From assembly GCF_900100365.1 (NCBI RefSeq), contig NZ_FNKU01000001.1, forward strand, positions 496,001 to 560,000: DNA of 64,000 nt. The letters are read 5' to 3'. The notes under the pieces are model-generated. The model saw only the letters and a list, made by a program, of their open reading frames with translations. It was not told where the DNA came from and did not search any database. This DNA comes from Pseudomonas cannabina. Lineage in GTDB: Bacteria; Pseudomonadota; Gammaproteobacteria; Pseudomonadales; Pseudomonadaceae. The translations under genes were made by a program, and so were the position numbers. Position 1 is the first letter of the stretch. Every line of letters starts with the position of its first letter. Shown here piece by piece: positions 5,555 through 26,336 of the stretch.

Positions 5555-6259
<705 letters not shown>

Positions 6260-6279
6260 AGTACGCAGGCTGATCGATA

Positions 6280-6303
6280 AAATGGCCCGCTAGCGGGCCA
6301 TTT
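6280..6303. terminator. Intrinsic terminator after adk
   Basis: A perfect palindrome, AAATGGCCCGCT followed by its complement, lies 20 nt after the adk stop and ends in a short T run. It can fold as a 10-12 bp hairpin. It sits immediately upstream of tsaB, so tsaB needs readthrough or its own promoter. Confidence 0.8.
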
Positions 6304-6346
6304 GTCATTTATACTGCGCCACTTTTTCACCAAGACGGAAACATCG

Positions 6347-7021
6347 ATGAGCACCTTGCTGGCCTTGGACACCGCCACTGAAGCCTGCTCGGTCGCTTTG
6401 CTGCATGACGGCAAGGTGCTGAGCCACTACGAGGTGATTCCGCGCCTGCACGCCCAGCGCCTGTTGCCGATGATCAAGGACCTGCTGGCCGAGGCGGGCA
6501 TTGCGATGTCGGCGCTGGATGCCATCGCCTTCGGGCGTGGTCCGGGGGCTTTTACCGGCGTGCGCATTGCCATCGGGGTGGTTCAGGGGCTGTCGTTCGC
6601 ACTGGAGCGTCCGGTTCTGCCGGTGTCCAACCTCGCGGTGCTGGCCCAGCGTGCCTTTCGTGAGCATGGCGCAACGCAGGTTGCCGCGGCCATCGACGCA
6701 CGCATGGATGAGGTGTATTGGGGCTGCTATCGCGAGACGGCGGGCGAGATGCGCCTGATTGGCGACGAAGCGGTCATGGCGCCCGAGCGGGCGACGCTGC
6801 CGACCGACGCCAACGGTCACTGGTTCGGCTCGGGCACTGGCTGGGGTTACGCCGAACGCATTCCGGTGAGTCTGGCAGCGCATGATGCAAGCATGCTGCC
6901 CCATGCCCAGGACTTGCTGACCTTGGCCACATTCGCCTGGAATCGTGGTGAGTCCTTGTCGGCAGACGACGCTCAACCGGTGTACCTGCGCGACAAGGTG
7001 GCCACGCCGAAAGCACGCTGA
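6347..7021 (+). CDS. tsaB: tRNA threonylcarbamoyladenosine biosynthesis protein TsaB
   Basis: The gene encodes 224 residues from ATG 6347; the open frame extends to 6302 but TsaB proteins begin close to LLALDTATEACSVAL. TsaB belongs to the ASKHA/YgjD-like fold and is the scaffold partner of TsaD and TsaE in making t6A at position 37 of ANN-decoding tRNAs. The N-terminal LALDTATEACSVAL strand, the FGRGPGAFTGVRIAIG block near residues 60-80 and the Ala-rich C-terminal domain are diagnostic. It lacks the metal-binding His motif of TsaD, as expected. The adk-tsaB neighbourhood is usual in Pseudomonas. Confidence 0.95.
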   Translation: MSTLLALDTATEACSVALLHDGKVLSHYEVIPRLHAQRLLPMIKDLLAEAGIAMSALDAIAFGRGPGAFTGVRIAIGVVQGLSFALERPVLPVSNLAVLAQRAFREHGATQVAAAIDARMDEVYWGCYRETAGEMRLIGDEAVMAPERATLPTDANGHWFGSGTGWGYAERIPVSLAAHDASMLPHAQDLLTLATFAWNRGESLSADDAQPVYLRDKVATPKAR

Positions 7022-8494: not shown

Positions 8495-9184
8495 ATGCGG
8501 GCATTGCTGTTTTTTCTGATGGTCTGCACAGGTGTTGCGCTTGCCGTCTGGCGCGGCTGGATTGATGTGCCCGTGCAGTGGAATCCCTGGGCGCCGCTCG
8601 ATGTGCACGCCGAGCCGAACGTCCTGACGTCTTACAAATTGTCACGACTGCAGAACGATCCTGCTCTGTGCGATCAAGTGCTGGCGACCTCGGGTTTGCG
8701 TTTCAGTCGGCAGGCGGACAGCGCTCCCGACGCCCGCTGTCCGCTGATGAACACGTTGCGCGTGCAGGGTGGCGAGGTGGCGCTGAGCAGCAGTTTTCTG
8801 GCCAGTTGCCCGCTGGCAGTGGCTTATGCGCTGTTTGATGTCCATACCTTGCAGCCTGCTGCTCAGGCGGTCTTTGGCCAGCGCGTGGCACGTATCGATC
8901 ACCTCGGCAGCTTCGCCTGTCGCAACATCTACAACCGCGCCAACAGCCGGCTGAGTCAGCACGCTAGCGCCAATGCCCTGGACATAGCCGGTTTTCGCCT
9001 GGCTGACGGTCAGCGAATCAACCTGCTCAAGGACTGGAGTGACAGCGGCGACAAGGGGCGTTTTCTAAGGCTGATTCGCGACGGCGCCTGCAAGAACTTC
9101 AGCACCGTGCTGGGGCCGGACTACAACGCCGCGCATCGCGATCACTTTCATATGGACATGGGGCGGTGGGCGGTATGCAAGTGA
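8495..9184 (+). CDS. Extensin-like family protein, membrane anchored
   Basis: The protein has 229 residues. An N-terminal hydrophobic stretch (residues 3-20) is an uncleaved anchor or signal peptide. The rest matches the bacterial extensin-like C-terminal domain. LRFSRQADSAPDARCPL is followed by ACRNIYNR and SQHASANALDIAGF, and finally AAHRDHFHMDMG. The His and Asp residues in the last two motifs resemble the zinc site of D,D-peptidase/LAS-like folds. A periplasmic cell-wall role is therefore plausible, but this is an inference. Four or more Cys residues could form disulfides in the periplasm. It is 48 nt downstream of the DUF72 gene. Confidence 0.8.
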   Translation: MRALLFFLMVCTGVALAVWRGWIDVPVQWNPWAPLDVHAEPNVLTSYKLSRLQNDPALCDQVLATSGLRFSRQADSAPDARCPLMNTLRVQGGEVALSSSFLASCPLAVAYALFDVHTLQPAAQAVFGQRVARIDHLGSFACRNIYNRANSRLSQHASANALDIAGFRLADGQRINLLKDWSDSGDKGRFLRLIRDGACKNFSTVLGPDYNAAHRDHFHMDMGRWAVCK

Positions 9185-15557: not shown

Positions 15558-16367
15558 TTATTGCAGCACGAAATAATCGTAGCGCATGGAAACGGTGACC
15601 TTGAAAGGTCCGGATTGCTCGATGACTGCCGCGCGGCGTTCGGCGCTGGCTCGCCAGCCGTGTGGCGTCATGGCCAGCAAATCGGCGCGGGACTGGCCGT
15701 CGATCAGCGTCAAGGTATAGCGCAGTGTTTCACTGTGTTGCAATTGCATGCCTTCCGGCACCAGCGCCAGGTGCTTATCGTCAGCGTAATCACGCACTTC
15801 ATCGTACAGCCGTTGACGCAGCTCCATCAGGTGCTCGCTGGTCGGGCCGACGCGCATCAGCCCGCCGCCAGGCGTCAGCAGGCGTTTGGCTTCTTGCCAG
15901 TCCAGCGGGCTGAACACGCTGGCCAGAAACTGACAACTCGCTTCCGCCAGCGGCACCCGGGCCATGCTGGCGACCATCCAGGTCAGCGCCGGATCACGAC
16001 GGCAAGCCCGCTTGACGGCTTCGCGGGAGATGTCCAGCGCGTAACCGTCGGCGCGCGGCAGGGCTTCGGCAATCTGCGCGGTGTAATAACCTTCGCCGCA
16101 GCCAATGTCCAGCCAGTGCGCCGGGTTGCGCTCGGCAGCCAGCTCGGCCAGTCGGCGGGCGACCGGTGCGTAGTGTCCGGCGTTGAGAAAGTTGCGCCGT
16201 GCTTCGACCATGGCCTGATTGTCACCAGGGTCGCGGCTGTTCTTGTGCTGCACCGGCAGCAGGTTCAGATAACCCTGTCGAGCACGGTCGAAACGGTGGT
16301 TGGCCGGGCAGACCACACCGTTATCAGCCGCACTGAGCAGCGCAGAGCAGATCGGGCAGGTCAGCAT
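15558..16367 (-). CDS. rlmA: 23S rRNA (guanine745-N1)-methyltransferase-type protein RlmA
   Basis: The protein has 269 residues. An N-terminal zinc finger, CPIC followed by CPANH (residues 4-24), is diagnostic for RlmA. A Rossmann SAM domain follows with LDIGCGEGYYTAQIAEALP and DISREAVKRACRR. RlmA methylates N1 of G745 in helix 35 of 23S rRNA; a related RlmA(II) acts on G748, mainly in Gram-positive bacteria. The start ATG overlaps the dapE stop by one base (TGATG), so the two are coupled. Naming as RlmA(I) is by family and organism type. Confidence 0.88.
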   Translation of the reverse strand: MLTCPICSALLSAADNGVVCPANHRFDRARQGYLNLLPVQHKNSRDPGDNQAMVEARRNFLNAGHYAPVARRLAELAAERNPAHWLDIGCGEGYYTAQIAEALPRADGYALDISREAVKRACRRDPALTWMVASMARVPLAEASCQFLASVFSPLDWQEAKRLLTPGGGLMRVGPTSEHLMELRQRLYDEVRDYADDKHLALVPEGMQLQHSETLRYTLTLIDGQSRADLLAMTPHGWRASAERRAAVIEQSGPFKVTVSMRYDYFVLQ

Positions 16368-17518
16368 CAGGCGAGCAACTTGACCAGAGTCCGGTAGTAA
16401 ATCTCGGTCAGTACATCGAGATCGCTGGCCAGAATACGTTCGTTGACTTGATGGATCGTCGCGTTGACCGGTCCCAGTTCGACCACCTGGGTGCCCAGTG
16501 TGGCAATGAACCGGCCATCGGAGGTTCCGCCACTGGTCGAGGCCTTGGTGTCGCGGCCGGTGACGCTCTTGATGCTGGACGACACCGCGTCCAGCAGCGC
16601 GCCCGGCTCGGTCAGAAACGGCAGGCCGGACAAGGCCCAGTCCACATGCCAGTCCAGCTCATGTTTGTCGAGAATGGTCGCCACGCGCTGTTGCAGGGCC
16701 TCGACAGTCGACTCGGTCGAAAAGCGGAAATTGAACACCGCGACCAGATCGCCGGGGATCACATTGGTCGCGCCGGTGCCGGAATTGAGGTTGGATATCT
16801 GGAAGCTGGTCGGCGGGAAGAAATCGTTGCCGTTGTCCCAGTGCTCGGCAGCCAGTTCGGCCAGCGCCGGAGCAGCGAGGTGAATCGGGTTCTTCGCCAG
16901 ATGCGGATAAGCCACATGGCCCTGCTTGCCACGCACGGTGAGTTTGGCACCGAGTGAGCCGCGACGACCGTTTTTGACCACATCGCCCACCAGCGTGGTA
17001 CTCGACGGCTCGCCGACGATGCACCAGTCGAGTCGCTCTTTGCGCGCTGCCAGGCGCTCGACGACAGCCTTGGTGCCATGGTGCGCCGGGCCTTCTTCGT
17101 CACTGGTGATCAGAAACGCCACCGAGCCCTTGTGATCGGGATGATCGGCGACAAAACGCTCGGCCGCGACCAGCATCGCCGCCAGACTGCCTTTCATGTC
17201 CGCTGCGCCACGTCCGCAGAGCATGCCCTGGTCGTCGATCAAGGCGTCGAACGGATCGTTCTGCCATTGCTCCAGCGGACCGGTCGGCACCACGTCGGTA
17301 TGCCCGGCGAAACACAGCACCGGGCCGTCCTGTGTGCCGTGGGTGGCCCAGAAGTTATCGACGTCTTCGATACGCATCGGCTCGAGCGTGAAGCCGGCAT
17401 CGCCCAGGCGCTGCATCATCACGGTCTGGCAATCGGCATCAACCGGGGTCACCGAAGGCCGACGGATCAGGTCGCAGGCCAGTTGGAGCGTGGGCGAGAG
17501 GTCGGCGGGGGCAATCAT
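16367..17518 (-). CDS. dapE: Succinyl-diaminopimelate desuccinylase DapE
   Basis: The gene encodes 383 residues. It hydrolyses N-succinyl-LL-diaminopimelate to LL-DAP, in the same lysine/peptidoglycan branch as dapD and dapC further along this window. M20 metallopeptidase motifs are present: [12 protein letters not shown] (zinc His and Asp), [10 protein letters not shown] (bridging Asp), [12 protein letters not shown] (catalytic Glu pair) and GEPSS. The dimerisation domain contains [10 protein letters not shown], and the C-terminal GGTSDGRF and ELGP motifs follow. It is the first gene of a short minus-strand operon with rlmA. The broken glucan-synthase gene and a terminator lie upstream. Confidence 0.97.
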
Positions 17519-17571
17519 GTACTGAACTCCATAGCAAGGCTGTGGGCGCGAAAAGGCTGTTATCTTATAGC

Positions 17572-17598
17572 AAAACGACGACCCGGGGCCGTCGTTTT
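17572..17598. terminator. Bidirectional terminator between the glucan-synthase pseudogene and dapE
   Basis: A perfect 9-bp stem AAAACGACG/CGTCGTTTT encloses a 9-nt loop. A/T runs on both sides make it effective in both directions. On the minus strand it lies 20 nt after the end of the downstream glucan-synthase pseudogene and separates it from dapE. Confidence 0.85.
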
Positions 17599-17617
17599 CG
17601 CACGCGATCCGGAGATC

Positions 17618-20234
17618 TCAGGTGGCCGGCTGCGCAGTGCGGTTTTCGCGGGCAGACAGGACCGCCATGACCACCGCCGCCAGATAGGGCAGCGATTGTG
17701 CGAACAGCATGGCAATCCAGAATCCTATGTCTGCATCGATGACCTTGCGATCAATGCACAACAACACAATCGTGGTCCATCCTGTTGCAACCATGCACAG
17801 TTCCTCACGCGCCTCATGTATTGCCTGCCCGTGATGGCTTGCGCAGGTAAGTTTTGGGGTACGAAAAAACGGCATTCCCGAGGTCACGAGCCCCGACAAC
17901 ACGGCTTTGCCTATCGTCGGATACAGCGCCATGCCGGCCAGTATGGCTGCCAGTGCTTCGTTGATGTGGGTGCTGATCCGTTGTCTGTAAAGTGCCGCTA
18001 CTTTGAGGGCGCGCACAACGTACATCAGGATCAATGACGTGGAAAATATCCATGGCACCGGTTCGACAGTGTCGGGCGTCAGGAGCATCGTCATGGACCA
18101 GGCGAGCGCCGCCAGTGCCAACAGATAATTCAGGCCTTCTGCTGCCCACGGCATCCACCCAACGACGAAATGGTAGCGTTGCATCGCGGTCACGGATGCG
18201 CAGTTTCCTGCAATCAGGCTTCCGGCATGCCGCTTGATGATCTGGATGGCGCCATATGCCCAGCGATAGCGCTGTTTCTTGAAATCAATGAATGTGTCGG
18301 GCGTTAGGCCTTTGCCATAGCTGGTAGCGGCGTAGCCGGTGGAAAATCCGTTTTCCAGCATGCGCAGACCAAGTTCGGCGTCTTCGCAAATGCACCATTG
18401 CGCCCACCCCAGCCGGTCCAGTGCCGAGCGGCGAATAAGGGTCATGGTGCCGTGCTGGATGATCGCATCGTGATCATTACGAATGACCATACCAATATTG
18501 AAAAAGCCTCGATACTCGGCGTGGCAGCAGCGTTTGAACAGACTTTCATGGCTGTCGCGATAATCCTGCGGTGACTGAATAACGGCAATCTTCGGGTCCA
18601 GGAAGTGCGGCATCATATGTTTCAGCCAGAGTCGCTGAACGCAATAGTCAGCATCGACGACGGCCACCACCTCGGCATCTTCAGCTGTATGTTTCAGCAG
18701 GTAATTGAGTGCGCCCGCCTTGAACCCGGGAAGCGAATCGACATGAAAAAACCGGAAGCGGGCGCCGAGTTGCTGGCAATAGCGTTCAATGGGCTTCCAG
18801 ATGGCCGGGTCTTGTGTGTTGTTGTCAATGACCAGCACTTCGAAATCCGGGTAATCCAGTTTTTGCAACGAATCGAGCGTCAGTTTCACCAGGTCAGGGG
18901 GTTCGTTGTAGCACGGCACATGCAGGGAAACCTTTGGCGTGGGGCCCACATGGCGGTGTTCAGGGGAGAACGATCGTGGGTCGTCCGGCCCCCAACAGGC
19001 TTCCAGAAACTCATGAGTTTCCATGCCGATGTAAGTCAGCAGGCTGGCAGCCCAGATAACAGCGACAGGCAGTGCCAGCCATACGGACAGTGATTGCGCG
19101 TAGCTCATGCCGAGCCAGACCAATGCGCAATAAATCAGAATCACTATTGAAGCACCTGTAAACCACGAGTCCGGCCTCAGGCGAGTCATGAGCCTGAGTA
19201 TTTCCGAGAGCATGTTGAGCGGCATTCTCACGGGGCCACGAACATGCAGTTTCAGTCTGCGCTTTGCATCGAACAGACCCCAGTTAGGGCCTGGCAGACC
19301 TTCTTCGGTCTTCCAGTGCTGGTCGAAAGCCTCTATCACGAAATAGTCATGGCCGTGCTGATCCAGCAACGGGATCTGATTGCGCAGGTATATCGAGTGT
19401 TCTGCCGCAGATGTCGTTATCCGTCTCTTGGCGCTGGCTTTGCTGGGCCAGCCAATCTCGGACAGTATGAGGGGCTTGTCAGGGAATCGAGTCCTCAGCT
19501 CATTGGCCCGTGCCAGCACCATCGGGCTCGCGTCTATCGCACCGGCGCCTTCCCAGAATGGCAATATATGAGCCGCTATAAAATCAGCATGTTCGGCAAG
19601 TTCCGGCGTCTCGTACCATTGCATCCATATTTCGGAAGGAGGCGCTGATTTATTCGATTTTTCGTCCCTGCAACGCTCTGGAGGCCTTGATTTATCTGGG
19701 GGCAACAGCTGGGTTTTAGAATAAATCAGCGTCTCCGGAAGTCGAGACAGGTACGTTGACGGCGCGTCGTGCGGTTTGCATATAGTGGACAAGCAGATCG
19801 ACAGGGATATCGTCACGAAGCAGAACTTCATTGCTGATGATCAGTCGTCGCACGCTTGAAAACCGATTGGTCAACTCGACCCCCTTCAGCAATTCCCGCG
19901 CATTATGTTTTTCGTCCTCTGTGATCCATACGCCGAGGGTGACCGTCATATCCAACTCTGCGGCGAGTTCGGGGATATGCATCAGTGTCCCTTCGACCGA
20001 GTACGTTCTTATATTCCGTGTGACGCTTCGAAGCAGCAGCAGGTCGTCCCTGATCTGGTCGCGAGTCGGAAAAATCTGTTTGTAGGGGCTTTGTCCCGGG
20101 CGAAACGGGGCATAGGCTAAACCAGAGATCATTTCAGGCCAGTCGGGCGGATGGTTGAGTCTGGTTTTGAACAGGTTTGTTGACCACGTGCCTGCCTTGT
20201 TTGAATTTTTACCCATGTTTGAAATGTGCTCCAT
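17618..20234 (-). pseudogene. GH17-GT2 beta-glucan synthase (NdvB-like), split by a 99-bp MITE
   Basis: Two frames represent one gene. The N-terminal frame (start about 20234) holds the first 166 native residues. The C-terminal frame continues from SEIWMQWY to residue 837. Removing the element at 19638-19736 and one GGAA copy joins them exactly. The N-terminal GH17 domain keeps both catalytic Glu signatures (LIISNEVLLRD and LILSEIGWPS). Two or more TM helices follow, then a GT2 domain with VPCYNEPP, VDADYC, CEDAELGLRM and QRYRWAYG, and C-terminal TM helices. Related proteins in pseudomonads synthesise beta-1,3-glucans implicated in biofilm tolerance. The 103-bp insertion shifts frame and brings a stop. 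ATG 20234 or the Met six codons later could start it. Confidence 0.88.
19634..19740. mobile_element. 99-bp MITE with 4-bp target duplication GGAA
   Basis: The element is 19638-19736, flanked by GGAA at 19634-19637 and 19737-19740. Its ends form an 18-bp inverted repeat, GGAG[G/A]CGCTGATTTATTC, mismatched only at position 5. There is no coding capacity. Its first ten terminal bases match the ends of the 1209-bp IS5-family elements at 21468-23889. A MITE of about 100 nt called MITEPsy1 has been described in P. syringae; identity with it is likely but not checked here. Insertion adds 103 bp, disrupting the GH17 domain of the surrounding gene. Excision of one repeat copy plus the element restores the frame. 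Confidence 0.9.
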
Positions 20235-21463
20235 GCGGTGTATCTGTAGCGCGACTCCCTGTCGCGTCTATTAACCTTGGCGGCTTTGAGGTGCCAGGCG
20301 TTTTAGAGCAAACGATGACCTGAGACCGCCGTTTATCGTGTCTTCTGGATATTCAAATAGTGGACGGGGCAGGGCGGTTTGCGCGAGCAGACAGGATCGC
20401 CATGGTCATGGCGGCTACGTAAGGCAATGACTGGGCGAACATTATCGCCACCCAGAATCCAAGGTCTGGACCGATAGCGTCTTTTCGGATGCACAGCGAT
20501 ACCATCATGGCCCACCAGGCCACGGCCATGTACAGATCTTCCCGGACGTCCAGCAGAGCCTTGCCGAGCCCGCTGCCAGAGGTCTGCTTGGGCGTGCGAA
20601 AGAACGGTAATCCTGAGGTGAATGCCGATGAAAGCACGGCCTTGCCTACGACCGAGTACAGCGCCATGCTCGCAATTATGGCTGCGAAGGCGTCTTTGAC
20701 GTCAGTGCTGGCCAATCGTTGATAAAGGCTGATCGCTTTGCAAACGCCCAGAACAAACATCAACAGTAATGAGGATGAAAATATCCACGGCACAGGTTCG
20801 AGAGTGTCGGGTTTAATGATCATTGCCATTGACCAGAGAAGCACAGCGATAGCCAGAAAGTAATTTATTCCCCCTGCAATCCAGGGCATCCAGCCGGCAA
20901 TGAAGTGATAGCGCTGTATTGGCGTCAAGGCCTCGCACGTACCTGCTATCAAGCTTCCAGTATGATGTTTGAGTATCTGGATGACTCCGTAAGCCCAGCG
21001 ATACCGTTGTTTCTTGAAGTCCATGAATGTATCCGGGATCAGTCCCTTGCCATAGCTGATGGCGACATAGCCGGTGGAAAAGCCGTTCTCCAGTATTCGC
21101 AGCTCGAGCTCGGCATCCTCGCAGATGCTCCATTCTGCCCAGCGCAGTTGCTGCAACACCGAATTGCGAATCAGGGTCATGGTGCCGTGCTGAATGATTG
21201 CGTCGTGGTCGTTGCGGATGACCATGCCAATATTGAAAAAAACGCGATACTCGGCCTGGCAGAAACGTTTGAACAGACTTTCGTCGCCATCACGGTAGTC
21301 TTGCGGTACTTGAATAACCGCTATATCCGGGGACGCAAAATAGGGGACCATGTGCTTGAGCCAATGCCGGTGCACGCAATAATCGGCATCGATCGCCGCT
21401 ACGATCTCGGCATCCTCGGCGGTGTATTTCAGCAGGTAGTTCAATGCGCCCGACTTGAACCCG

Positions 21464-22680
21464 CTAAGGAGACGCTGAACAATTAACCCGTTCGCACCGT
21501 CCCCATTTCCAAGCCGGTTTTTTTCAACCTGCCGGCCTTATTTTACGTTTCTCGAGCAGATTTCTGCCCTCATTTTGCTGAAAGGCGGGCCAGTCCCGCC
21601 TTTCAGACGGATTTATCCTGCCGTCTGTTGTAAATACCGCTTGGCCAGCATCAGATTGGCCAACCCAAACAAACTGAACAACTGCGCTGTATTCTTTTCC
21701 AGCCCACGGTAGCGAACCTTGCGATGATTGAAGCGCACCTTGATTACCTGGAAGGGGTGCTCGACCTTGGCACGCAGTTGCGCCTTGGCATATTCAATTT
21801 TGCGCTTGACCCGATACAGCACGCTGCCTTCGCCGTGCTGCTTGTAACTGCTTGGCCGTTCTGCAATCGACCAGATAACGTCCCGTTCAGCATGCTCCGG
21901 TCGCTTGGCCGCACCGGTGTATCCAGCGTCACCCGAAACATAGGTTTCGTCACCGTGAAGCAACTGGCCAACCTGGGTGACATCCGCCACGTTAGCGGCC
22001 GTCCCTACTACGCTGTGCACCAGCCCCGACGTGGCGTCTACACCAATGTGGGCCTTCATCCCAAAGTGCCATTGATTGCCTTTCCTGGCCTGATGCATCT
22101 CAGGATCACGCTTGCCTTCTCGGTTCTTGACCGAGGGCGGCGCGGCGATCAGAGTAGCGTCGACGATAGTGCCTTCCTTGAGCAGCAGCCCCCGGCTGGC
22201 CAGATGCTGGTTAATCGTTTCAAACAGCAGCCGGGTTAGCTGATGGACTTCCAGCAAGCGGCGAAAACGCAGCAAGGTGGTGGCATCCGGTGCAGACTCG
22301 CGACCCAGGTCGATACCCATAAAACCGCGGATGGCCTGGCTGTCGTAGACGGCATCTTCGCAACCTTCATCGGAGAAACCGAAACACTGCTGCACGACGT
22401 ACATGCGCAACATGCGCGACACCCCTATCGCAGGGCGTCCGCGCTTGCCTGCGGTGTTGCTATAAAACGGCGCCACTTGCGCCTCCAGCAGGGCCCAGGG
22501 CACCAACTGTTCAAGGTCAGCCAGGAAGCGATCTCGGCGAGTCTGCTTTTTCTTGCCGGTATATTCGAGTTCGGAGAAGGTCTTCTGCACGCGCGTAACG
22601 CTCACGGAGAGGGAGGCTGTTGAAGGAACTTAGTGTGCCAAGGGTGGGGACAGTTGGCTATTTTTGCAGCGCCTCCCTAA
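21464..22680 (-). mobile_element. IS5-family insertion sequence, tandem copy 1 (1209 bp)
   Basis: The element spans 21468-22676 with CTAA at 21464-21467 and 22677-22680. Ends are GGAGACGCTGAACAATTA (left) and GGAGGCGCTGCAAAAATA (right end, complement), an imperfect terminal repeat. The 4-bp CTAA target fits the YTAR preference known for the IS5 subgroup. It encodes one transposase. It differs from copy 2 at one base that I noticed, 22522 (C) against 23735 (T). Confidence 0.93.
21613..22605 (-). CDS. IS5-family transposase, copy 1
   Basis: The protein has 330 residues and a GTG start. An N-terminal IS5-type region (SRMLRMYVVQQCFGFSDEGCEDAVYDS) is followed by a DDE catalytic domain. The first Asp is in GTIVDATLI, the second in GDAGYTG and the Glu in VEHPFQVIK. 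RYRGLEKNTAQLFSLFGLANL is typical of the family C-terminus. The frame is intact, so the element is probably active or recently so. It catalyses cut-and-paste transposition of elements with matching ends. Confidence 0.95.
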   Translation of the reverse strand: MSVTRVQKTFSELEYTGKKKQTRRDRFLADLEQLVPWALLEAQVAPFYSNTAGKRGRPAIGVSRMLRMYVVQQCFGFSDEGCEDAVYDSQAIRGFMGIDLGRESAPDATTLLRFRRLLEVHQLTRLLFETINQHLASRGLLLKEGTIVDATLIAAPPSVKNREGKRDPEMHQARKGNQWHFGMKAHIGVDATSGLVHSVVGTAANVADVTQVGQLLHGDETYVSGDAGYTGAAKRPEHAERDVIWSIAERPSSYKQHGEGSVLYRVKRKIEYAKAQLRAKVEHPFQVIKVRFNHRKVRYRGLEKNTAQLFSLFGLANLMLAKRYLQQTAG

Positions 22681-23893
22681 GGAGACGCTGAACAATTAAC
22701 CCGTTCGCACCGTCCCCATTTCCAAGCCGGTTTTTTTCAACCTGCCGGCCTTATTTTACGTTTCTCGAGCAGATTTCTGCCCTCATTTTGCTGAAAGGCG
22801 GGCCAGTCCCGCCTTTCAGACGGATTTATCCTGCCGTCTGTTGTAAATACCGCTTGGCCAGCATCAGATTGGCCAACCCAAACAAACTGAACAACTGCGC
22901 TGTATTCTTTTCCAGCCCACGGTAGCGAACCTTGCGATGATTGAAGCGCACCTTGATTACCTGGAAGGGGTGCTCGACCTTGGCACGCAGTTGCGCCTTG
23001 GCATATTCAATTTTGCGCTTGACCCGATACAGCACGCTGCCTTCGCCGTGCTGCTTGTAACTGCTTGGCCGTTCTGCAATCGACCAGATAACGTCCCGTT
23101 CAGCATGCTCCGGTCGCTTGGCCGCACCGGTGTATCCAGCGTCACCCGAAACATAGGTTTCGTCACCGTGAAGCAACTGGCCAACCTGGGTGACATCCGC
23201 CACGTTAGCGGCCGTCCCTACTACGCTGTGCACCAGCCCCGACGTGGCGTCTACACCAATGTGGGCCTTCATCCCAAAGTGCCATTGATTGCCTTTCCTG
23301 GCCTGATGCATCTCAGGATCACGCTTGCCTTCTCGGTTCTTGACCGAGGGCGGCGCGGCGATCAGAGTAGCGTCGACGATAGTGCCTTCCTTGAGCAGCA
23401 GCCCCCGGCTGGCCAGATGCTGGTTAATCGTTTCAAACAGCAGCCGGGTTAGCTGATGGACTTCCAGCAAGCGGCGAAAACGCAGCAAGGTGGTGGCATC
23501 CGGTGCAGACTCGCGACCCAGGTCGATACCCATAAAACCGCGGATGGCCTGGCTGTCGTAGACGGCATCTTCGCAACCTTCATCGGAGAAACCGAAACAC
23601 TGCTGCACGACGTACATGCGCAACATGCGCGACACCCCTATCGCAGGGCGTCCGCGCTTGCCTGCGGTGTTGCTATAAAACGGCGCCACTTGCGCCTCCA
23701 GCAGGGCCCAGGGCACCAACTGTTCAAGGTCAGCTAGGAAGCGATCTCGGCGAGTCTGCTTTTTCTTGCCGGTATATTCGAGTTCGGAGAAGGTCTTCTG
23801 CACGCGCGTAACGCTCACGGAGAGGGAGGCTGTTGAAGGAACTTAGTGTGCCAAGGGTGGGGACAGTTGGCTATTTTTGCAGCGCCTCCCTAA
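22677..23893 (-). mobile_element. IS5-family insertion sequence, tandem copy 2 (1209 bp)
   Basis: The element spans 22681-23889 and shares the CTAA at 22677-22680 with copy 1; a third CTAA is at 23890-23893. Ends and length equal those of copy 1, and the orientation is the same. The tandem arrangement places two complete elements head to tail with only one 4-bp target copy between them. Confidence 0.93.
22826..23818 (-). CDS. IS5-family transposase, copy 2
   Basis: The 330-residue protein is identical to that of copy 1. The one base difference noticed (T at 23735) lies in a Leu codon, CTG versus CTA, and is synonymous. The DDE residues and the intact frame are as in copy 1. Near identity indicates that the second copy arose recently, by transposition next to the first or by unequal recombination between sister copies. 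Confidence 0.95.
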   Translation of the reverse strand: MSVTRVQKTFSELEYTGKKKQTRRDRFLADLEQLVPWALLEAQVAPFYSNTAGKRGRPAIGVSRMLRMYVVQQCFGFSDEGCEDAVYDSQAIRGFMGIDLGRESAPDATTLLRFRRLLEVHQLTRLLFETINQHLASRGLLLKEGTIVDATLIAAPPSVKNREGKRDPEMHQARKGNQWHFGMKAHIGVDATSGLVHSVVGTAANVADVTQVGQLLHGDETYVSGDAGYTGAAKRPEHAERDVIWSIAERPSSYKQHGEGSVLYRVKRKIEYAKAQLRAKVEHPFQVIKVRFNHRKVRYRGLEKNTAQLFSLFGLANLMLAKRYLQQTAG

Positions 23894-25473
23894 GTGGATT
23901 GACATGAAAGAACCGGAAGCGAGGCCCCAGTTGCCTGCAATACTGCTCGATGGGCTTCCAGACTTCCGGGTCTTGAGTGTTGTTGTCGATGATCAGAACC
24001 TCAAAGCTCGGATAGTCCAGCCGTTGCAATGCGTCGAGCGTCAGCTTCACCATGTCGGGAGGTTCGTTGTAGCACGGCACGTGTATGGACACTTTGGGTA
24101 ACGGGCCCGCGTAAGCTCGTAACGGAGGAAAAGATCGCGGTTCCTCCGGTCCCCAGCATGATTCGAGGAACTCGTAACCCTGTATCCCTGTGCCGATCAG
24201 TAAGCTGGTCGCCCATGCCAATACGATGGGCAAAGCCACCCACATCGATAAAGACTGTGCGTAACTTATGCCAACCCCTAACAGTAATGCGTACAACGCA
24301 GCAAAAACCAATACGGTTGTTCGCCAGTTGTCGGGCTGCCAATCGGCGATCAATCTCGGAACTTCTGATCGCCAGCTGGCGCGTATTTTTACTGGGCCTT
24401 GCAGTGGTGACTTTATCTTTCGCTGGGCATCGAACAGGCCCCAGTGAGGCCCCGGCAACCCCTCCTCAGTTTTCCATTGTTGATCAAATGCCTCCCTGAC
24501 AAAGTAGTCTAAGCCACTCTGATTCAACAGCGCGAGCTGGCTTCGCAGGTAGATTGACTGTTCGGCGTTATAGGCGATGGTGCGTCTTCTGAAGTTGCCT
24601 TTGTCTGGCCAGCCAATCTCGGAAAGTATCAGCGGTTTTTCGGGAAACATCAGCCTCAATTCGTTCGCCCGTGCGAGAACCGCAGAGCCTGCCTGGGTGA
24701 CCGGAACGAACTCCCTGAATGGCAAGACATGCGCCGCGATGAACTCTACGTGATCAGCCAGTTTCGGCGTATCGTGCCACTGTTGCCATCCCTCTGAGGT
24801 TGAAACCGGAACGTTGACACTTCGTCGTGCGGTTTGTATGTAATCAATCAGTTGGCTGACGGTGACGTCATTGCGCAGTAATGCTTCATTTCCGATGATC
24901 AGACGCCGGACGCTGGGGTACTGATTGGCAAGCTTCACGCCCTCGATCAGTTCCCGATCATTACGTTTTCCGTCCCAGCCTATCCATATGCCGAGGGTGA
25001 CACTCATACCGAGTTCTTCGGCTATTTCGGGAATACAGGCCAGCGTCTGCTCGACCGAGTAGGTTCTTACATGTCGAGTCAACGGGCGGATCAGCAGCAA
25101 GTCTTCTTTGATTTGCTCACGGGTCGGATAAATATGGTTGTAGGGACTTTGTCCGGGACGAAAGGGGTTATAGGCAAGGCCCGAGATGCTGTCAGGCCAG
25201 TCAGGGGCCTTGTTCACGACGGATTTGAATAGGTTGACCGGCCAGATTAGAGCGTCTGGTTTTTTTTTATTCATGTTTGAAATGTGCTCCATGCGGCATA
25301 TCGATATCGCGGCTTCCTGTCGCGTCTATTAATCCTAGCGGCTTTGAGGTGCCGGGCGCTGCCGGTACTTAGACTCTTTTCTGCGTTGTCGCTGCTAAAC
25401 AAAGGTTTTTTGCACCGTTAGCGCTGATCGCGACTGAGGAGCAAGGCGGGTGTCCTAACCTGCGACAACCCCA

Positions 25474-25479
25474 TATAAT
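25474..25479 (+). promoter_or_regulatory. Probable -10 box of tcdA
   Basis: A perfect TATAAT lies 26 nt upstream of the tcdA start. The expected -35 position (about 25451-25456, TGTCCT) is weak, so strength or activator need is unclear. Confidence 0.55.
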
Positions 25480-25505
25480 GCGCGCCGGTTTTCGGGGTAT
25501 TGATC

Positions 25506-26336
25506 ATGAGCACAGACGATCCACGTTTCGCAGGCATCGCCCGTTTGTATGGCGTCGAGGGGCTGGCGCGCCTGCGTGCGGCTCATGTGGCGATCGTCGG
25601 TATTGGCGGTGTGGGTTCCTGGGCGGCAGAAGCCATGGCGCGCAGTGGCGTGGGCGAGATTTCGCTGTTTGACATGGACGACGTCTGTGTCAGCAACAGC
25701 AATCGCCAGCTACACGCGCTGGACAGCACCGTCGGGCGGCCCAAGGTTGAGGTGATGGCCGAGCGCATCCGGGCTATCAACCCCGACTGTGTAGTGCACG
25801 CGGTGGCGGATTTCGTGACCCGCGACACCATGGCCGAGTGCATCACCGCGGACATGGACTTCGTGATCGACTGCATCGACAGCGTTAACGCCAAGGCCGC
25901 GCTGATCTCCTGGTGCAAGCGCCGCAAGATCCAGATGGTCACCACCGGCGGTGCAGGCGGGCAGGTAGATCCGACTCTGATTCAGATCGCCGACCTGAAC
26001 CGTACCTTTAATGACCCCTTGGCGTCCAAGGTGCGTTCGACTCTGCGTCGCGACTACGGTTTTTCACGCACACCGAATCGCCACTACAGCGTGCCCTGTG
26101 TCTTTTCCACCGAGCAACTGCGCTATCCGAAGCCGGATGGCAGCATCTGTCTGGAAAAGAAGTTCGTCGGTGACGGCGTCAAGCTGGACTGTGCCGGTGG
26201 GTTCGGCGCGGTGATGATGGTGACTGCCACGTTCGGCATGGTCGCCGCCACGCGCGCCGTGGACAAGTTGGTCGCCGGCACGCGGCGGCCGTCCGAGCGG
26301 GTCAAGCCTCTGGCGGCGGCAGCCGATCAGGCCTGA
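25506..26336 (+). CDS. tcdA: tRNA threonylcarbamoyladenosine dehydratase TcdA
   Basis: The protein has 276 residues from ATG 25506. It is an E1/ThiF-like enzyme (CsdL/YgdL) that uses ATP to cyclise t6A37 of tRNA to ct6A. The nucleotide-binding GIGGVGSWAAEAMARSGVG and the DMDDVCVSNSNRQLHA pattern are diagnostic; a C-terminal hydrophobic segment follows FGAVMMVTATFG. It functions with CsdA-CsdE; the SufE-like and desulfurase genes lie directly downstream on the opposite strand, overlapping by ten bases at the 3' ends. tsaB, which makes its substrate, is at 6.3 kb. Confidence 0.95.
   Translation: MSTDDPRFAGIARLYGVEGLARLRAAHVAIVGIGGVGSWAAEAMARSGVGEISLFDMDDVCVSNSNRQLHALDSTVGRPKVEVMAERIRAINPDCVVHAVADFVTRDTMAECITADMDFVIDCIDSVNAKAALISWCKRRKIQMVTTGGAGGQVDPTLIQIADLNRTFNDPLASKVRSTLRRDYGFSRTPNRHYSVPCVFSTEQLRYPKPDGSICLEKKFVGDGVKLDCAGGFGAVMMVTATFGMVAATRAVDKLVAGTRRPSERVKPLAAAADQA

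What the first reader, a model, noticed from the sequence alone, without database searches (positions are those of the whole stretch)
17618..25292. Two adjacent paralogous glucan-synthase genes, both broken by different mobile elements
Both genes encode a GH17 hydrolase domain fused to a GT2 transferase and TM helices. One is split by a 99-bp MITE and the other by tandem IS5-family elements. Subtracting the elements and their target duplications yields open frames of exactly 837 codons in both cases. Loss of both copies in one strain suggests that beta-glucan production by this locus is dispensable or under negative selection. The conserved sequence upstream of both (GTCGCGTCTATTAA then GGCGGCTTTGAGGTGCC in one, AGCGGCTTTGAGGTGCC in the other) supports a tandem duplication.
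Basis: partly seen in the sequence, partly recalled or inferred. Interest (0 to 1): 0.75.

Follow-up and report, generated by a model that had tools for sequence, protein, structure and literature searches.

The report
Two broken alleles of glucan synthase
A plant-associated Pseudomonas carries two very different versions of a glucan-making gene side by side where seven related genomes carry one, and both are cut by related jumping DNA; the gene at this spot appears to be swapped between lineages more than the DNA around it.

Summary
Gene A (17618-20234, minus) is cut by a 99-bp MITE (19638-19736) and gene B (20353-25292, minus) by two tandem 1209-bp IS5-family elements (21468-23889). The pieces of each gene align to intact homologues of about 837 aa. 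They belong to the NdvB/"Orphan" GH17-GT2 cyclic beta-glucan synthase family, at its usual place beside dapE.

The interpretation needs changing. (1) A and B are not a recent tandem duplication: they fall in two separate clades of genes that sit alone at this site in other genomes. Seven of seven related genomes carry one open copy. (2) The site is hypervariable. Against sister genome G339, 110 of 128 half-kilobase pieces of the window are at least 90% identical, and the deep drop is at this locus, ending at the spacers on both sides. A second genome pair shows the same, and three relatives share a GH17 half but not a GT2 half. (3) Selection is not needed for the double break: this genome holds 238 MITE copies (within 3 mismatches) and 95 IS ends, and seven relatives have no such MITE match. 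The breaks look like collateral of a transposition burst. Intact relatives of A (99%) and B (93-95%) exist elsewhere.

The parts
17618..19637 (-). gene A, 3' piece: end of GH17, whole GT2 domain and C-terminal part
   Evidence: open frame; 672 aa, 99.1% to P0001 (P. cannabina pv. alisalensis), 79-81% to the P. avellanae, cerasi, tremae and KUIN-1 genes
19638..19736 (.). 99-bp MITE inside gene A, 4-bp repeat GGAA on both sides
   Evidence: 238 copies of the 89-bp core within 3 mismatches in the genome, no match in 7 of 7 relatives
19737..20234 (-). gene A, 5' piece: first half of GH17
   Evidence: 163 aa; 93.6% to P0001 over 157 aa, 74-79% to the same four A-type genes
20353..21467 (-). gene B, 3' piece: rest of GT2 and C-terminal part
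   Evidence: open; 94.6% to P0016 (P. syringae group genomosp. 3)
21468..22676 (.). IS5-family element, copy 1; transposase 21613-22605 (-)
22681..23889 (.). IS5-family element, copy 2, in tandem, 4 bp (CTAA) from copy 1; transposase 22826-23818 (-)
23890..25292 (-). gene B, 5' piece: GH17 and start of GT2
   Evidence: 466 aa; 92.7% to P0016; GH17 22.5 bits (below cut-off), GT2 34.9 bits
20235..20352 (.). 118-bp spacer between B and A; from 20303 on it aligns with the stretch downstream of single-copy genes, A's side with their upstream element
16367..17518 (-). dapE, conserved neighbour; identity to G339 94-100% per 100 nt up to the spacer
   Evidence: name by recall
25500..26336 (+). tcdA-like conserved neighbour; identity to G339 returns to 94-100% at its start
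   Evidence: name by recall

Best explanation
The site between dapE and tcdA holds the P. syringae-group NdvB/'Orphan' cyclic beta-glucan synthase (GT2 makes a beta-1,3-glucan, periplasmic GH17 cuts and closes it: proposed for the family, not tested here). Shown here: at this site the synthase differs between close genomes far more than its flanks do, species carry distinct allele types, and some proteins are mosaic between the GH17 and GT2 halves; the reading is exchange between lineages. Inferred: the window's strain gained a second allele type (A and B side by side) by recombination at this site. Shown: an IS5-family element (tandem, in B) and a 99-bp MITE with like ends and target (in A), both in high copy number in this genome, cut the two genes. 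Inferred: no full-length enzyme of this type is made in this strain, and the double loss is collateral of a recent burst with no strong selection needed.
For: One open gene in 7 of 7 relatives, two broken ones here. Window against sister G339: 110 of 128 pieces of 500 bp at least 90% identical; 10 of the 12 longer matches below 90%, both short matches and all 4 pieces without a match lie within 17501-25500. Edges at the spacers. Second pair: G107 against KUIN-1 has dapE 96.3%, tcdA 92.7%, synthase 68-73%; G107 against P. cerasi has dapE 94.0%, tcdA 93.9%, C-terminal part 73.1% (no N-part match at the limit used). P. cerasi against P. avellanae: synthase 91-94%, tcdA 86%, but the 216 nt of dapE held are 92%. 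Quick trees of both halves (SH-aLRT only) put A with avellanae/cerasi/tremae types (99, 97) and B with P0016, G107, P0011, P0014, P0015 (98, 100). Mosaics: the three pairs of P0011, P0014, P0015 are 90-100% identical in all 40-aa blocks of the first 320 aa; later, 27 of 36 blocks lie at 62-80% (range 40-100). Burst. 19 of 100 MITEs lie exactly 4 bp from an IS end, 0.016 expected.
Against: How the second copy arrived was not observed; an old duplication with loss of one copy in most lines plus some exchange fits much of it. In the GH17-side tree G339 groups next to the B clade (support 94), so its status as a third type rests on the GT2 side and on distance. Few genomes were read at this locus. 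Whether the strains of P0001 and P0016 have two copies could not be read. The MITE in A sits at GGAA, not at the YTAR of 27 of 28 MITE sites read. Several of the seven relatives without the MITE are drafts in which repeats can be lost. One (A) and two (B) changes at positions invariant in all 126 family rows may mean relaxed constraint before the insertions, though 20 of 126 family rows also have at least one such change. Biochemistry is inferred.
Confidence: 0.68

Rival explanations
1. Old tandem duplication in the group's ancestor; most lines later lost A or B; this strain kept both until the elements broke them.
For: A and B are complete gene units with similar upstream elements, and B's end keeps a downstream stretch like that of single-copy genes.
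Against: G339 differs from both; mosaics exist; P. cerasi and P. avellanae synthases (91-94%) are more alike than their tcdA (86%), though not than the 216 nt of dapE held (92%); 7 of 7 relatives have one copy.
Confidence: 0.24
2. One reading: tandem duplication, then both copies removed because glucan from this locus is useless or harmful.
For: Both copies are broken, by separate insertions; each gene has a change at otherwise invariant positions; 4 of 24 same-genus genomes lack a strong match.
Against: A and B are not sisters. The element load alone makes one doubly hit neighbour pair plausible (and my estimate). The pieces are otherwise open.
Confidence: 0.12
3. The genes are not fully lost: A's 3' frame (737 aa, with the MITE read in frame) keeps the whole GT2 part and could give a synthase without a complete GH17.
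For: The frame is open for 737 aa and A's GT2 Pfam matches lie in it.
Against: Its start lies out of frame inside gene A; no ribosome-binding site was tested; half of GH17 is missing.
Confidence: 0.07

Closest known systems
Pseudomonas NdvB / BcsA-like 'Orphan' cyclic beta-(1,3)-glucan synthases (Spiers et al. 2023, PMC10237404; abstract, section 10 and found passages seen)
   Same: GH17 plus GT2, immediately upstream of dapE; P. syringae members called the most divergent, with a GC drop in DC3000 read as recombination or transfer
   Different: two unlike copies in tandem, both broken; sharp-edged allele differences and GH17/GT2 mosaics; none of these in what I saw of the paper
MITEPsy1 of P. 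syringae pv. phaseolicola (Bardaji et al. 2011, PMC3189936; found passages seen)
   Same: 100 nt, 4-nt target repeat at CTAG or YTAA, attributed to an IS5-family element, breaks genes, found next to IS copies
   Different: different terminal repeats; 6 copies in strain 1448A, 238 here
IS5-family elements (NF033581)
   Same: transposase, inverted ends, 4-bp CTAA repeat; 11 of the 30 plasmid records listed carry it at 100%, such as pPMA4326A
   Different: nothing beyond copy number and tandem pairs

Membership tests
NdvB/Orphan GH17-GT2 synthase | gene directly upstream of dapE | tested here: met
NdvB/Orphan GH17-GT2 synthase | GT2 domain with DxD, ED and QxxRW motifs | tested here: met
   Pfam; motifs (recalled) seen by eye in the translations
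NdvB/Orphan GH17-GT2 synthase | N-terminal GH17 domain | tested here: met
   indirect: B's 5' piece is below the Pfam cut-off (22.5 of 28.2 bits) and A's 5' piece has no match; intact A-type P0003 matches 4wtp at E 6.4e-25; some listed homologues carry PF00332
NdvB/Orphan GH17-GT2 synthase | transmembrane helices | not tested
   -
NdvB/Orphan GH17-GT2 synthase | makes cyclic beta-glucan | not testable with these tools
   -
MITE | short, no gene, inverted ends, target repeat, many copies | tested here: met
   99 bp; 24 of 28 sites with an identical 4-bp repeat; 238 copies
MITE of this IS5 element | moved by this element's transposase | not testable with these tools
   shared 10-bp ends up to A/G at one place, 19 of 100 exactly 4 bp from an IS end: suggestive only
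IS5 family | IS5-type DDE transposase, inverted ends, 4-bp repeat | tested here: met
recent tandem duplication | the two copies are each other's closest relatives | tested here: not met

The most novel reading that the evidence does not exclude
The cyclic-glucan synthase site of the P. syringae group is a diversifying, cassette-exchanged surface-sugar locus (as O-antigen loci are, by recall): allele types and GH17/GT2 recombinants make different glucans that are sorted by host or phage recognition, and this strain first held two types at once and then fell silent.
Probability: 0.25. Interest if true: 0.75.

Novelty: new variant of a known kind. Interest (0 to 1): 0.5.

Why it matters
NdvB-type glucans are linked to biofilm-associated antibiotic resistance in P. 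aeruginosa, and cyclic glucans to plant infection (abstract of PMC10237404). A synthase that differs as a cassette between close genomes, with GH17 and GT2 halves recombined, suggests that the product or its recognition varies, which a direct glucan comparison can test. The strain is also a natural double knock-out by sequence and shows a large MITE expansion with its likely parent element in the same genome.

Tried and rejected
Recent tandem duplication: rejected by the trees. Upstream motif as proof of duplication: rejected, relatives have it. A third copy as backup: none. First test for MITEs inside genes (third-position GC rule) called 0 of 20 sites genic, gene A included, so it failed its own positive control and was dropped. 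Second test (at least 200 nt open on both sides of one strand): 47 of 50 points inside five known genes pass; 3 of 20 MITE sites pass, one of them gene A. No intergenic control was run, and the 20 sites were those first fetched, not a random draw. Double-hit estimate (mine, no call): about 25-130 hit genes in an assumed 5,500 gives k*k/5500 = 0.1-3 neighbour pairs; the share of IS copies inside genes was not measured. The second genus search drew largely the same genomes; it brought up G348, which was used, and G193, which was not followed. The strain's name stays open: gene A's large piece is 99% to a P. cannabina pv. alisalensis protein, and two plasmid searches (2 of 8 fetched contig stretches) gave partial, group-wide matches.

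Full report
Observation. The window has two minus-strand genes between dapE (16367-17518) and a tcdA-like gene (25500-26336). Gene A (17618-20234) is cut by a 99-bp element at 19638-19736 with inverted ends and a GGAA repeat. Gene B (20353-25292) is cut by two tandem 1209-bp IS5-family elements with CTAA before, between and after, which differ by one base. I did not build the uninterrupted frames; the pieces were handled apart and align to residues 1-163/166-837 (A) and 1-466/469-837 (B) of the 837-aa P. avellanae type without other stops.

Family. GT2 is firm; GH17 is below the Pfam cut-off in B's piece, unmatched in A's cut piece, and firm by sequence for an intact A-type relative (4wtp, E 6.4e-25). 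Position beside dapE and architecture match the NdvB/'Orphan' cyclic beta-glucan synthases (PMC10237404; abstract, section 10 and found passages seen). That paper already calls P. syringae members the most divergent and reads a GC drop in DC3000 as recombination or transfer.

Copies. The own genome has only these two. Seven of seven related genomes (P. cerasi, P. avellanae, P. tremae, KUIN-1, and unnamed G107, G339 and the more distant G348) have one match at E <= 1e-40, with an open frame of 848-887 aa. In the wider genus 20 of 24 sampled genomes have a strong protein match, two a weak one and two none, so the gene is common but not universal. A protein 99% identical to A's large piece is recorded from P. 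cannabina pv. alisalensis, and one 93-95% identical to B from genomosp. 3.

Not a recent duplication. Quick trees (SH-aLRT, no bootstrap) of the GH17 side and of the GT2 side, 35 rows each (27 chosen of the 120 listed proteins, six locus proteins and the two window genes), put A in a 12-row clade with avellanae, cerasi, tremae and coronafaciens types (support 99 and 97) and B in a 6-row clade with P0016, G107, P0011, P0014 and P0015 (98 and 100). G339's gene lies outside both; on the GH17 side it stands next to the B clade (94). A and B share 67-72% of DNA. The upstream motif also occurs in P. avellanae and P. tremae.

A hypervariable site. Of 128 window pieces of 500 bp, 110 match G339 at 90% or more. 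Twelve longer matches are below 90%: two lie elsewhere (86% at 6001, 89% at 8501) and ten within the locus, as do the two short matches and the four pieces without a match (the IS region). Per 100 nt, identity is 94-100% in dapE and tcdA and falls at both spacers. G107 against KUIN-1 repeats this (dapE 96.3%, tcdA 92.7%, synthase 68-73%). P. cerasi against P. avellanae shows synthase 91-94% with tcdA 86%, but the 216 nt of P. avellanae dapE held are 92%. P0011, P0014 and P0015 share the first 320 residues (90-100% per block); afterwards 27 of 36 blocks lie at 62-80%. I read this as exchange between lineages, also inside the gene.

The elements. The MITE core (89 bp) occurs 238 times within 3 mismatches; the 100 places listed have none, but the list seems sorted by mismatch, so the other 138 may differ. 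Seven of seven relatives have no match within 3 mismatches; several of those are drafts. It is known from 38 P. syringae-group plasmid records, 37 of them at 95% or more. The IS has 95 left ends within 3 mismatches and is 100% identical in 11 of the 30 plasmid records listed. Both end in GGAGRCGCTG. 27 of 28 MITE sites read are flanked by YTAR on both sides, the gene A site being the exception, and 24 of 28 have an exact 4-bp repeat. 19 of 100 MITEs lie exactly 4 bp from an IS end, against 0.016 expected; two tandem IS pairs lie in that stretch and two more among the 45 IS copies. The likely reading is that the same or a related transposase moves both and that each element's target repeat attracts the next; this also explains the tandem IS in gene B. 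MITEPsy1 (PMC3189936, found passages seen) behaves alike but has other ends and six copies.

Meaning of the double break. 3 of 20 MITE sites look genic (no intergenic control, not a random draw). If that share holds, some 25-36 genes are hit by MITEs, plus those hit by IS; one doubly hit neighbour pair is then no surprise. The gene pieces are otherwise open, so the hits look recent. One (A) and two (B) changes at family-invariant positions exist; 20 of 126 family rows have one or more too. Two MdoG-family genes are open elsewhere.

Literature. Searches (open-licence library only) listed no title or abstract start on allele replacement at this locus or on this MITE expansion; I saw listings and the passages named (also passages of the MITE review PMC10969869), not whole texts.

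Noticed in passing
whole genome G000: 238 copies (within 3 mismatches) of a 99-bp MITE and 95 left ends of an IS5-family element; no MITE match in 7 of 7 relatives.
   Followed up: partly
G000:C1, the 100 MITE places listed: 19 of 100 MITEs sit exactly 4 bp from an IS end (0.016 expected); IS-IS tandem pairs with 4-bp spacing occur at four places.
   Followed up: partly
19634-19740: The MITE in gene A sits at GGAA although 27 of 28 MITE sites read are at YTAR.
   Followed up: no
P0011, P0014, P0015: Synthases with 90-100% identical first 320 residues and strongly different later parts.
   Followed up: partly
L031 and L032: P. cerasi and P. avellanae synthases are more alike (91-94%) than the neighbouring tcdA (86%), about as alike as the 216 nt of dapE held (92%).
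   Followed up: partly
6001-6500 and 8501-9000: Two further window pieces with lower identity to G339 (86%, 89%) than the rest of the flanks.
   Followed up: no
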